The notes beneath the pieces were generated by a model. That model had not been told where the DNA came from. It searched no databases and worked only from the letters and a program-made list of their open reading frames with translations. A stretch of 54,062 bases of DNA from Nitrosospira multiformis (GTDB taxonomy: Bacteria > Pseudomonadota > Gammaproteobacteria > Burkholderiales > Nitrosomonadaceae), in contig NZ_QAOK01000023.1 in assembly GCF_003050865.1 (NCBI RefSeq), positions 1 to 54,062 on the forward strand, in the 5' to 3' direction. The position numbers and the translations under genes were made by a program. Positions within the stretch are counted from its first letter, which is position 1. Every line of letters begins with the position of its first letter. Positions 2,147 to 20,072 of the stretch are shown piece by piece.

Positions 2147-3016
2147 TTACCAGGTAATCGCCAGATAATCCAGCGCGATACCGGCAAATATCGTCGCGCC
2201 TACCCAGTTGTTGTGAAGAAAAGCCTTGAAACAGCGCGCACGGTCGCGGTCGTGGATCAGGCCGTATTGATACAGGATCAGCCCCAGCGCTGTCACAAGA
2301 CCGATGTAATAAACGGTGCCGAGATTGTGGATCAGGCCGATGGCAACCATGCTCCCGAGGAAAACCGCGTGGCACAGCATCACACCGGCCACGTCGAAAC
2401 GTCCGAACGTGATGGCGGAAGTCTTGATGCCGATCTTGAGATCGTCCACCTTGTCCACCATGGCATATTCGGTATCGTAGGCGATCACCCACAAGAGGTT
2501 TGCACCCATCAGGAACCAGGCAAGGAACGGCACTTCCCCGGTCTGGGCCGCAAATGCCATCGGGATGCCGAAGCTGAAGGCAATGCCGAGGTAAGCCTGC
2601 GGCATGGCGAAAAACCGCTTGGTGAAAGGATAGCTGGCAGCGAGGAACAGGGCAACGAACGAAAGCTCGATGGTAAGCCGGTTCAGCGGCTGGATCAGCA
2701 GGAATGCCACGAGGCTCAAACCTGCGGCCAGCAGCAACGCTTCCCTGGTGCTCACCACTCCAACTGCGAGGGGCCGGCTCCGGGTGCGCTCGACATGCCC
2801 ATCGAAATTGCGATCAGCATAGTCGTTGACGACACAACCGGCGGAACGCATCAGCACCGTGCCCAGCACGAATATCAACAGGATATCCAGCCGTGGCACG
2901 CCTTCCGCCGCCAGCCACAAGCCCCACAGCGTGGGCCACAGCAGCAGCAGAATGCCGATAGGCTTGTCCAGCCGCATCAGCTTTTCGTAATGCACGAAAC
3001 GTTGAGTGAGTGTCAC
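2147..3016 (-). CDS. ubiA: 4-hydroxybenzoate octaprenyltransferase UbiA
   Basis: This integral membrane prenyltransferase joins the polyprenyl chain to 4-hydroxybenzoate, the step before UbiD. The 289 residues contain the two aspartate-rich motifs of the UbiA superfamily: NDYADRNFD at 64-72 and [12 protein letters not shown] at 180-191. The start is a GTG at 3016. It overlaps the stop codon of the decayed upstream ubiC copy as GTGA, which is the original ubiC-ubiA coupling. The functional ubiC now lies 16 kb away at 19429-19971, so ubiA has lost its original upstream partner and probably its promoter region. Confidence 0.95.
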
Positions 3017-3326
3017 GCGAACTCCAGGATGGAAGGAAGAAGCACTTCAATAACCGATATAAAATTCACTTCCCGCACCAATGCCGGTTCAGTTAGCGCT
3101 GCCATAGATTCGCCATGGCATCTCATTGGCTATCTCATTGGCCAACTCATCGCCGCACGTCACGTCCAGCGACTGGAACACAGCCTTGACACTGAGTTCC
3201 CCCATAGCAGCGGCATTGAATAATGCTGGGTAAGCAAGGCGCGATTCTGCAGCCAGCGCGTGCGGAAAGAAAAGGGTGAATTATGCCGCATTATCCCCTG
3301 CAGCTGAATCTCCAGCCCCTTGGAGC
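2964..3326. repeat. Left copy of the duplicated ubiC-ubiA junction
   Basis: This segment is homologous to 19379-20072 in the same orientation. In the colinear stretch 2964-3060 versus 19380-19476 I count about 12 differences in 97 bases, all transitions. The left copy lacks about 265 bases (19477-19741 on the right). In the right copy that stretch is bounded by two CAATAT hexamers (19471-19476 and 19736-19741), as in deletion between short direct repeats. A second gap of about 60 bases lies near 3260. The two copies bracket the NRPS island. Confidence 0.8.
3013..3263 (-). pseudogene. ubiC: Decayed ubiC (chorismate lyase) copy
   Basis: This is a remnant of chorismate pyruvate-lyase immediately upstream of ubiA. 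Reading on the minus strand, WLQNRALLTQ matches WLQNHGSLTQ of the intact copy. After a frameshift the sequence continues as a match to the intact GEFSVKPVFQSL and CGDELA segments. It then has [12 protein letters not shown] joined to [13 protein letters not shown], where the intact gene has VREVYLY and, 88 codons later, ILVTEVFLPSILELA. It has therefore lost its N-terminus and an internal 88 codons, and carries at least one frameshift. Chorismate lyase function must come from the 19429-19971 copy. Confidence 0.8.
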
Positions 3327-3462
3327 CGAGGAAAAGTGATCTCTCTTTCAAATAAACGGCCTTTTCGGATTCATTACATTGAAATTCCCGCAGGATTGAC
3401 TAAATTCAAAATGCAGAGCACCAGATAGACGAGCGGGACGTGTCCCAAAGGAAGAGCGTTGG

Positions 3463-18468: not shown

Positions 18469-19215
18469 CTATTGATCAGATGGATGCCAGCGGAGGCCTG
18501 ACTCATAATCCCAAAATTCAACTGCGTTGATCGACGTGTTGACAGCAACGCAACCGACCATGTTTCTTTTTGGCTTAAAGAGCAGCAATTGCCAGGAATC
18601 CGCAAGAGCATGATCATCGGAGTCAAAGAGAATCTTCGGCTCGTTATTCACGATGCCAATCTCGAAGCTGTCCAAGGGCTTGGAAAGTCCTCGTCCCAGC
18701 GCTTTGATGTAGGCCTCCTTGCAGGTCCACAGCATGAAAAATGCGTCATCCCGGGCATCATGAGCCATCCCATCCAGCCAGGCCTGCTCGCCAGTTGCAA
18801 AATATGAGGAAATCGACCCGAGCGAACTGAAATCCCGGACTGTCTCAGCATCCACTCCTATCTCGGCTCCGCATGTGACGGCGTGGATTATGCAATCGCC
18901 GGAATGCGTTACATTGAACTGCACTGAACTGTCGGGATATTGAAGAAACGGTTTGCCGTACTGATTTTTTTTGAACCGAATCCGCTCAGGAGCAAAACCT
19001 GTATATCGGGCCATCAACGAGCGAAGAGAGGCGCGGGCTAGAATGGATTGTTCCCGATCCTGACGGAAGTGGAAGCGGGCAGCGTGCAGCTTCTCCTCTT
19101 CATCAAGAAGCGACAGGTGATAATCGAACGATATCCGCGTTTGCGCAACCGATACGAACCAGAGGTGGGCCGTTCGTTCGGGAAGTCCGATCACTGTGGA
19201 AGCTCCATCATTCAT
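18469..19215 (-). CDS. Sfp-type 4'-phosphopantetheinyl transferase
   Basis: Transfers phosphopantetheine from coenzyme A to the conserved serine of carrier domains, here most likely the four T domains of the adjacent NRPS. The 248 residues are typical of the Sfp class and show GKP (87-89), FNVTHS (100-105), the Mg-binding IGVDAE (119-124) and WTCKEAYIKALGRG (163-176), where the acidic and lysine residues are conserved. It is convergent with the methyltransferase (32 bases between stops) and so has its own promoter, within 19216-19375. Its presence inside the island makes the cluster self-sufficient for activation. Confidence 0.93.
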   Translation of the reverse strand: MNDGASTVIGLPERTAHLWFVSVAQTRISFDYHLSLLDEEEKLHAARFHFRQDREQSILARASLRSLMARYTGFAPERIRFKKNQYGKPFLQYPDSSVQFNVTHSGDCIIHAVTCGAEIGVDAETVRDFSSLGSISSYFATGEQAWLDGMAHDARDDAFFMLWTCKEAYIKALGRGLSKPLDSFEIGIVNNEPKILFDSDDHALADSWQLLLFKPKRNMVGCVAVNTSINAVEFWDYESGLRWHPSDQ

Positions 19216-19378
19216 GTCCTATTCCCACATGTGCTGTTGTACGCCAAACGTATCCGCGTAGTTGCGCCGGTCCACAGAATGTGGCTATCAATTTTTTGGC
19301 GACCGCGACAACAGCATAGAAGCCCCCAACAATACCGTTAGCTAGTATCCGGCACGGGCCGCAGCATTATGAGATGGA

Positions 19379-20072
19379 CTTACCCAACCGCATCAGCTTT
19401 TCGTAATGCACGAGACGTTGAGTGAGTATCACGCGAGCTCCAGGATGGAAGGAAGGAATACTTCGGTAACCAATATGGACTGGCCATGCAGTGTGAACAG
19501 GGAGCGGCGCGCCCACAGACTCGCCGGCTGTACCTGCAACTTGCGGCAGGCGCGGGTGAAAAGCGGATGAGCGGACGTCAGTTTCTTGAAGCGGAGCGGT
19601 GTACGCTTGACGATAGGATTGGTAAACAATACTGTCCCCAGCGACTTGTTGCCAAGTCCAATCAGGCTGCGCCATGCGCCGCGCAAATCTTTCCGTGCCA
19701 CCACGGAATGGGCAAATACCACTGGCGTCTCGCCGCAATATAAATACACTTCCCGCACCAGCGCCAGTTCATCCCGCCGTAAATTCATCACTGCCAGCTC
19801 ATCGCCGCAGACCGTTGCCAACGACTGGAACACGGGCTTGACGCTGAATTCCCCACAGCAGCGGCGTTGAATAAGCTGGGTAAGAGAGCCGTGATTCTGC
19901 AACCAGCTACGGGCGCGGGGCGATATGGAAGAGAGTGCAGGATGCCAGTCCGATAGCGGGGCAGCATTCATTCCGGAAGAGCTGAAAAGGGTGAATTATG
20001 CCGCATAATCCAGCCCGGCTGAATCCCCACCCACCTTTGCCTCCTTTGTCTCTTAACTTTCCCCTTGGAATA
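19379..20072. repeat. Right copy of the duplicated ubiC-ubiA junction
   Basis: Direct-orientation partner of 2964-3326. It holds the first codons of ubiA (GTG at 19432, reading [20 protein letters not shown] then stop), a complete ubiC, and the sequence upstream of ubiC. ubiA homology breaks at about 19379, after some 19 codons, and this marks the right-hand edge of the island. Confidence 0.8.
19429..19971 (-). CDS. ubiC: Chorismate pyruvate-lyase UbiC
   Basis: Converts chorismate to 4-hydroxybenzoate and pyruvate, the first committed step of ubiquinone synthesis. The 180 residues match UbiC, including LVREVYLYCGETPVVFAHSV in the middle and the TEVFLPS C-terminus. Its TGA overlaps a GTG that starts only a 20-residue ubiA fragment, so the translational coupling is preserved but leads nowhere. 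The full ubiA sits at 2147-3016, on the other side of the NRPS island. Because the left ubiC is a pseudogene, this is the only functional copy in the window. Confidence 0.9.
   Translation of the reverse strand: MNAAPLSDWHPALSSISPRARSWLQNHGSLTQLIQRRCCGEFSVKPVFQSLATVCGDELAVMNLRRDELALVREVYLYCGETPVVFAHSVVARKDLRGAWRSLIGLGNKSLGTVLFTNPIVKRTPLRFKKLTSAHPLFTRACRKLQVQPASLWARRSLFTLHGQSILVTEVFLPSILELA

What the first reader, a model, noticed from the sequence alone, without database searches (positions are those of the whole stretch)
2964..20072. NRPS island sits inside a split ubiC-ubiA operon, bracketed by two diverged copies of the junction
The ubiC-ubiA boundary occurs twice in direct orientation, about 16.4 kb apart. 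Left: decayed ubiC and intact ubiA. Right: intact ubiC and a 20-residue ubiA stub. NRPS, methyltransferase and PPTase lie exactly between. This is the pattern left by a single-crossover (Campbell-type) integration of DNA carrying the same junction, or by a tandem duplication followed by loss. The copies differ by about 12%, so the event is either old or the incoming DNA came from a related species. No transposase, integrase or tRNA is at the edges.
Basis: partly seen in the sequence, partly recalled or inferred. Interest (0 to 1): 0.78.

Follow-up and report, generated by a model that had tools for sequence, protein, structure and literature searches.

The report
NRPS locus fusing two chromosome versions
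In a Nitrosospira-like ammonia-oxidising bacterium, a peptide-making gene cluster sits between two copies of a ubiquinone-gene junction, most likely because two alternative versions of the same chromosome spot were joined end to end; it is a tidy recombination scar rather than a new kind of mobile element.

Summary
In detail: the ubiC-ubiA junction occurs twice, in direct orientation, 16.4-16.7 kb apart, with NRPS, methyltransferase and PPTase between. Of 68 sampled family genomes with both genes, 66 have them side by side; the exceptions are this genome and G008, a N. multiformis MAG with the same layout.

The reading changes. In G001, G003 and G007 the same cluster sits beside an intact ubiC, in the slot btuC-[cluster]-ubiC-ubiA-ubiD. 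In the closest relatives (G004-G006) that slot holds a SLAC1-type transporter instead. Here both versions stand in series: btuC-transporter-ubiC-ubiA' | relic of btuC's 3' end-PPTase-MT-NRPS-decayed ubiC-ubiA-ubiD. The relic is far above chance in this genome (0 of 2000 real stretches) but marginal in G008. Cluster divergence from other carriers is like host divergence, so no sampled foreign lineage looks like the donor.

Best explanation (0.6): DNA from a cluster-bearing chromosome of the same clade recombined by homology in ubiC-ubiA-ubiD and was joined illegitimately at btuC'/ubiA'. Tandem duplication with later replacement is the main rival. A retained left promoter for ubiA is plausible but two tests do not show it.

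The parts
622..2085 (-). ubiD, next gene of the ubiC-ubiA-ubiD run
   Evidence: Follows ubiA in the relative loci that reach that far; name recalled, not profile-scanned
2147..3016 (-). intact ubiA (4-hydroxybenzoate octaprenyltransferase)
   Evidence: TIGR01474 343.8 bits against cut-off 275.45; PF01040
3017..3317 (-). left copy: decayed ubiC, start codon and about 300 nt lost, plus its upstream block
   Evidence: Repeats D7, D9, D10; deletion endpoints identical in G008
3463..17775 (+). NRPS of 4770 aa, four modules, read as C-A-T-C-A-T-E-C-A-T-C-A-T, no thioesterase hit in the nine pieces scanned
   Evidence: Pfam on nine consecutive pieces: Condensation x5, AMP-binding x4, PP-binding x4; the third condensation-family domain is read as epimerisation by eye from motifs (recalled)
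17738..18436 (+). SAM methyltransferase distantly like guanidinoacetate N-methyltransferase
   Evidence: PF08241 22.3 bits, cut-off 21.2; profile hit to 1xcj, E 2.6e-8
18469..19215 (-). 4'-phosphopantetheinyl transferase (PPTase)
   Evidence: PF01648 and PF22624
19288..19342 (-). relic of the 3' end of btuC, second copy
   Evidence: Score 45 against the G001 btuC end; 0 of 2000 real 157-nt stretches reach it; one frame reads LTVLLGASMLL
19356..19360 (.). inferred joint between ubiA' and btuC', at GGCCC; similar TGGC(C/T)C in ubiA and in the G001 btuC end
   Evidence: Read by eye from alignments; inference
19361..19432 (-). ubiA 5' stub, about 24 codons
   Evidence: Alignment to ubiA
19429..19971 (-). 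right copy: intact ubiC (chorismate lyase)
   Evidence: PF04345 102.8 bits
19984..20032 (-). upstream block of ubiC, also kept on the left (3269-3317)
   Evidence: Repeat D10; a 22-nt core found in 25 of 25 aligned rows, both left copies included, up to 4 substitutions allowed
20249..20752 (-). response regulator gene, found at this place otherwise only in G005 among the loci mapped
   Evidence: PF00072
21308..22411 (-). SLAC1-type transporter (TDT), marker of the cluster-free version of the slot
   Evidence: PF03595; in the loci of G004, G005, G006 and G008, not in the other loci mapped
22441..23526 (-). intact FecCD-type permease (called btuC here), outer flank of the slot
   Evidence: PF01032; the name btuC is recalled

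Best explanation
Two alternative versions of one chromosomal slot were fused in series in the ancestor of this genome and G008. Version 1 was btuC-transporter-ubiC-ubiA-ubiD, as in G004-G006; version 2 was btuC-PPTase-MT-NRPS-ubiC-ubiA-ubiD, as in G001, G003 and G007. DNA of version 2, from a cell of the same clade, entered a version 1 cell, recombined by homology in ubiC-ubiA-ubiD, and its other end, broken in the last part of btuC, was joined illegitimately to ubiA of the resident chromosome at about codon 24-30, perhaps through a match of 5-6 bp. A circularised version 2 fragment integrated by one crossover would leave the same product. The result has ubiC twice; the right copy kept ubiC, the left copy kept ubiA, and the spare ubiC on the left decayed. 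Shown: both slot versions in relatives, both in series here and in G008, the btuC relic in this genome, identical decay of the left ubiC in G008, cluster divergence like host divergence. Inferred: transfer between cells, the type of joint, and that the left upstream block still drives ubiA-ubiD.
For: Slot order in relatives: cluster contiguous with btuC and ubiC in G001, G003, G007; consistent with it across contig ends in G009 and G020; transporter in G004, G005, G006; both only in G000 and G008. btuC relic beside PPTase, where version 2 has btuC: score 45, 0 of 2000. G000 and G008 are sisters on the GlnD tree (100/97) and G004-G006 a clade (95/90), so one gain suffices. Distances of G000 from non-sister carriers are like host ones (NRPS end piece 0.270-0.310, GlnD 0.295-0.315) and so is G000-G008 (0.092 vs 0.074). 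Left ubiC remnants lie inside the five-genome clade, 100/99. By hand, with G007 as the one outgroup and G000's copies, the right copy has changed 0.044 since the copies split, equal to half the deepest right-copy distance in the clade (0.088/2), so the split is about as old as that clade.
Against: No cluster-bearing, transporter-free member of this clade is among the genomes held, so the donor version is inferred. The left copy's place among the right copies is open: with G000R+G008R (AU 0.321), outside all five (0.342) or with G004-G006 (0.286). The btuC relic is marginal in G008 (best score 30; 70 of 2000 reach it), ordinary against the clade's own btuC ends (23; 294 of 2000), and not special to carriers: G014 and G015, without the cluster, score 35 like G007 and G009. 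Cluster and host trees do not agree fully: G022's cluster is nearer to G001/G020 (0.157-0.160) than its GlnD is (0.260-0.264), so clusters have probably moved within the genus. ubiA and ubiD trees do not recover {G000,G008}, and in the transporter G008 is nearer to G005 (0.089) than to G000 (0.121). The upstream block is not significantly better kept than the rest of the remnant (12 of 84 vs 88 of 415 differences, p 0.18; invariant-column tests p 0.11-0.73), and the promoter scan does not call it on the ubiC strand.
Confidence: 0.6

Rival explanations
1. All in one lineage: the stretch from btuC's end to ubiA's start was duplicated in tandem, the first cluster copy was then lost and replaced by the transporter, and G004-G006 later lost the second copy, for instance by recombination between the two ubiC copies.
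For: Needs no transfer; explains the btuC'/ubiA' joint, the clade-internal left copy and the host-like cluster divergence. The two ubiC copies are direct repeats whose recombination would give the G004-G006 order.
Against: More steps: duplication, replacement, loss. No genome with two clusters: the methyltransferase has one match in each of the 9 of 23 genus genomes that have it; absence is weak evidence.
Confidence: 0.28
2. As first proposed: Campbell-type integration, into the ubiC-ubiA junction, of DNA from a different Nitrosospira lineage.
For: Direct repeats flank the island; other lineages carry the cluster; G022's cluster seems to have moved between lineages.
Against: Left remnant is not with the sampled carrier lineages (AU 0.027 and 0.021); cluster divergence is like host divergence. 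A clade-internal circle remains possible and is counted under the best explanation.
Confidence: 0.07
3. Insertion by a transposon, integrase or other dedicated mobile element.
For: Cluster is patchy: methyltransferase in 9 of 23 genus genomes, one of them only 59% alike.
Against: No tRNA in the window; no inverted repeat of 40 nt or more in 1-26000; no integrase or transposase recognised by eye among listed ORFs (not every ORF was profile-scanned).
Confidence: 0.03

Closest known systems
Homology-facilitated illegitimate recombination (HFIR)
   Same: One end joined by homology, the other end illegitimately (PMC3240628, abstract and passages seen).
   Different: In the passages seen HFIR is linked with insertions coupled with deletions; here no resident gene is missing and flank sequence is doubled. 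The event is read from scars, not observed.
Displaced effector-immunity modules of Vibrio cholerae T6SS loci
   Same: A new module is anchored by shared flank and pushes the resident version aside, leaving a remnant in series; the authors suggest a mechanism akin to HFIR (PMC5361080, section 13 and passages seen).
   Different: There the leftovers are immunity genes in arrays; here a housekeeping operon junction is doubled and a biosynthetic cluster is carried.
Campbell-type single-crossover integration (recalled)
   Same: Direct repeats of the crossover region on both sides.
   Different: Needs a circle; the btuC'/ubiA' joint would then be the circle's closing point. No plasmid or phage gene recognised by eye.
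NRPS-MT-PPTase cluster of Nitrosospira sp. NpAV (G009), Nsp11 (G020) and Nitrosovibrio tenuis Nv1 (G022)
   Different: One ubiC match each, no second junction found; in Nv1 ubiC lies on another contig and the methyltransferase match holds a TGA.

Membership tests
HFIR product | Homologous arm on one side | tested here: met
   ubiC-ubiA-ubiD shared by both versions
HFIR product | Non-homologous joint on the other side | tested here: met
   ubiA' next to btuC relic; clear in G000, marginal in G008
HFIR product | Short match at the joint | tested here: inconclusive
   GGCCC/TGGC(C/T)C read by eye from decayed sequence
HFIR product | Loss of resident DNA | tested here: not met
   No version 1 gene is missing; flank doubled
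HFIR product | Linear incoming DNA | not testable with these tools
   Needs experiment
Campbell integration | Direct repeats flank the insert | tested here: met
Campbell integration | Circular donor | not testable with these tools
   No trace either way
Tandem duplication then loss | Both copies from one lineage | tested here: inconclusive
   Left copy within clade, exact place unresolved
Tandem duplication then loss | Intermediate with two clusters | tested here: not met
   None among 23 genus genomes, by methyltransferase; weak evidence
Integrative mobile element | tRNA or terminal repeats at edges | tested here: not met
   No tRNA; no inverted repeat of 40 nt or more; shorter ones not sought
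Integrative mobile element | Recombinase gene | tested here: inconclusive
   None recognised by eye among listed ORFs; no full profile scan

The most novel reading that the evidence does not exclude
The btuC-ubiC slot works as a stacking site: alternative cargoes that otherwise occupy it one at a time are joined in series by recombination through the conserved ubiC-ubiA-ubiD arm, and the doubled junction is then kept because each half serves a different gene, the right one making UbiC and the left one, now a decayed gene, acting only as the promoter of ubiA-ubiD.
Probability: 0.4. Interest if true: 0.55.

Novelty: new variant of a known kind. Interest (0 to 1): 0.4.

Why it matters
It suggests, from scars on both sides, how a biosynthetic cluster can enter or re-enter a chromosome without a recognised mobile element and without displacing the resident version, and how an operon of ubiquinone synthesis can be split yet leave both genes whole. 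It also points to one slot, btuC-ubiC, whose content varies across the genus, and to an NRPS cluster there for which three searches of the paper library (listings only) showed no description.

Tried and rejected
Palindrome idea: TTATGC-G-GCATAA upstream of ubiC looked like a regulator site; an exact search (TTATGCNGCATAATTC) hits the own genome once only, at the right copy, and the left copies and several relatives deviate, so no regulon is claimed. Promoter retention on the left: the tests are not significant; scans do not call it.

Short NRPS of G008 as repeat collapse: the left arm of its joint (up to 3972) matches both the first and the last condensation domain, but the right arm begins at 15853, 913 nt beyond the matching place in the last one (14940), so a plain collapse does not explain it; a MAG error is not excluded.

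Trees: the first junction tree held upstream columns that are not homologous and gave 89/92 for the left copies outside all five; the trimmed tree leaves this open, and I rely on the trimmed one. Six groupings were AU-tested, chosen; the sixth, G000L with G000R, is strongly rejected (p 1e-63). In one search the G004 row went in on the wrong strand; the alignment was rebuilt. In one search two btuC rows (G002, G022) have absurdly long branches, probably misthreaded because the aligner drops stop signs; later scripts masked stops. GlnD of G015 (partial) was left out of the tree (22 of 23 genomes).

Print: Nitrosospira with nonribosomal peptide (8 of 8 listed), with comparative genom + secondary metabolite (12 of 33 listed) and with NRPS (6 of 6 listed); only listings and starts of abstracts were seen, none shows this cluster. 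sought HFIR only.

Full report
What is there. Direct repeats place the ubiC-ubiA junction at 2957-3317 and again at 19373-20032. On the left ubiA is whole and ubiC is in fragments; on the right ubiC is whole and ubiA is a stub of about 24 codons. Between them are a 4770-residue NRPS, a methyltransferase and a PPTase. Blocks are 79-87% identical; over 284 shared columns the two copies differ by 17.3%.

Is the separation unusual? ubiC and ubiA are side by side in 21 of 22 genus relatives. In a family sample of 71 genomes (the 23 of the genus and 48 others), 68 have both genes; reading the match coordinates, the gap is at most 185 bp in 66, and the two exceptions are this genome and G008. The three genomes without matches (G043, G044, G047) are 51-74% complete.

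G008. Both left remnants share two deletions with the same endpoints and a shared insertion, so the event came before their split. Its NRPS lacks what corresponds to 3973-15852 here but stays open as an 809-residue ORF.

The home slot. Mapping window proteins on the relatives' loci sorts the 22 relatives by what lies between btuC and ubiC: cluster contiguous with both in 3 (G001, G003, G007); cluster on a contig beside btuC and ubiC near the end of another contig in 2 (G020 with an NRPS piece beside ubiC; G009 without an NRPS hit in the 405 bp left, though its upstream sequence aligns with that of G003 and G007); part of the cluster beside btuC with ubiC inside another contig in 1 (G022); PPTase alone in 1 (G002); transporter in 3 (G004-G006; G005 also has the response regulator); transporter plus second junction plus cluster in 1 (G008); 111-197 bp only in 6 (G011, G013-G016, G018); 2.0-7.1 kb of other genes in 3 (G012, G017, G021); no btuC hit beside ubiC in 2 (G010, G019). 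In the home arrangement NRPS and ubiC are divergent neighbours, as NRPS and the ubiC remnant are here. So the left junction resembles the home one and the extra ubiC-ubiA' on the far side is the novelty.

The second scar. In carriers PPTase is followed by the 3' end of btuC. Here 19288-19342, between PPTase and the ubiA stub, aligns with btuC ends of other Nitrosospira. Of 1000 shuffles, 0 reached the score against G001, G003, G009 and G020, 1-4 against G002, G007, G016 and G022, 15 against G017, 74 against G011 and 87-226 against the five of the own clade. Against 2000 real stretches of the window the best score (45, G001) was never reached (maximum 40); the score against the own clade is ordinary (23; 294 of 2000); in G008 the best score is marginal (30; 70 of 2000). 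G014 and G015, which lack the cluster, score 35, as G007 and G009 do, so the likeness is to btuC of other groups in general, not to carriers alone. This fits a copy that left before the clade's own changes, but 55 nt cannot prove it.

History. GlnD (22 of 23 genomes) gives {G000,G008} 100/97 and {G004,G005,G006} 95/90; G000 with G005 is rejected. btuC+HAD+Hda agree (91/90 and 99/98, with two misthreaded btuC rows outside this clade); single-gene ubiA and ubiD trees do not show it, and the transporter distances speak against it (G008-G005 0.089, G000-G008 0.121). For the eight carriers, distances of G000 and G008 from the others are similar in the NRPS end piece (0.270-0.310) and in GlnD (0.289-0.315); the methyltransferase is lower (0.200-0.249) and the PPTase higher (0.319-0.361). 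The trees agree on {G000,G008}, {G001,G020} and {G003,G007,G009} but not on G022, whose cluster is nearer to G001/G020 (NRPS piece 0.157-0.160) than its GlnD is (0.260-0.264). So clusters have probably moved within the genus, but no sampled foreign lineage looks like the source of this one. The left remnants fall in the five-genome clade with 100/99, and their exact place is open: AU 0.321, 0.342 and 0.286 for three placements inside the clade, 0.027 and 0.021 for placements with other carriers.

Mechanism. Two slot versions in series, with each flank doubled and cut at one joint (ubiA'/btuC'), is what recombination between two chromosomes gives when one end is homologous and the other is not. 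HFIR is reported from natural transformation (PMC3240628, abstract and passages) and something akin to it was suggested for serial displacement of modules in Vibrio (PMC5361080, section 13). Against a plain HFIR label: no resident gene is lost. A circle integrated by one crossover, or a tandem duplication with later replacement, gives the same order. I favour transfer at 0.6 because both end states exist in relatives and no genome with two clusters was seen among 23.

Function. The locus looks whole for ubiquinone synthesis: one intact ubiC, one intact ubiA. A 22-nt core of the block upstream of ubiC is found in all 25 aligned rows, left copies included, which would fit a kept start site for ubiA-ubiD, but the conservation tests are not significant. 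The NRPS has four modules and no thioesterase hit in the Pfam scan; the methyltransferase is distantly like guanidinoacetate N-methyltransferase, with relatives at 48-62% identity in mostly actinobacterial genomes outside the genus. The product is unknown; activity was not tested.

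Noticed in passing
window 3526-4540 and 14494-15508: First and last condensation domains of the NRPS are nearly identical in DNA (99% and 100% in two 300-nt blocks), which suggests recent gene conversion or duplication; G003 shows three matching modules in a 3725-residue frame where G007 shows four in 4798.
   Followed up: partly
window 1-621 and L058 1-3531 (G008): DNA similarity to the window ends at the 3' end of ubiD (619-622) in the 8 relatives whose ubi loci were compared; G008 has AIPR, MT-A70 and BglII-type endonuclease genes there, so this side may be a second variable site.
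   Followed up: partly
L185 3875-10991, L186 12614-18889, L187 2646-4637: Other cargo in the btuC-ubiC slot: by eye a helicase, DNA ligase and nuclease set in G012 and a bactofilin-like gene in G017 and G021 (not profile-scanned).
   Followed up: no
G022:C20:2333-2983: The methyltransferase match in Nitrosovibrio tenuis Nv1 holds a TGA and G002 keeps only the PPTase at the slot, so the cluster may be decaying in several lineages.
   Followed up: no
window 20249-20752: Response regulator gene beside ubiC is shared with G005 but not found at this place in G008, G004 and G006, against the GlnD tree.
   Followed up: no
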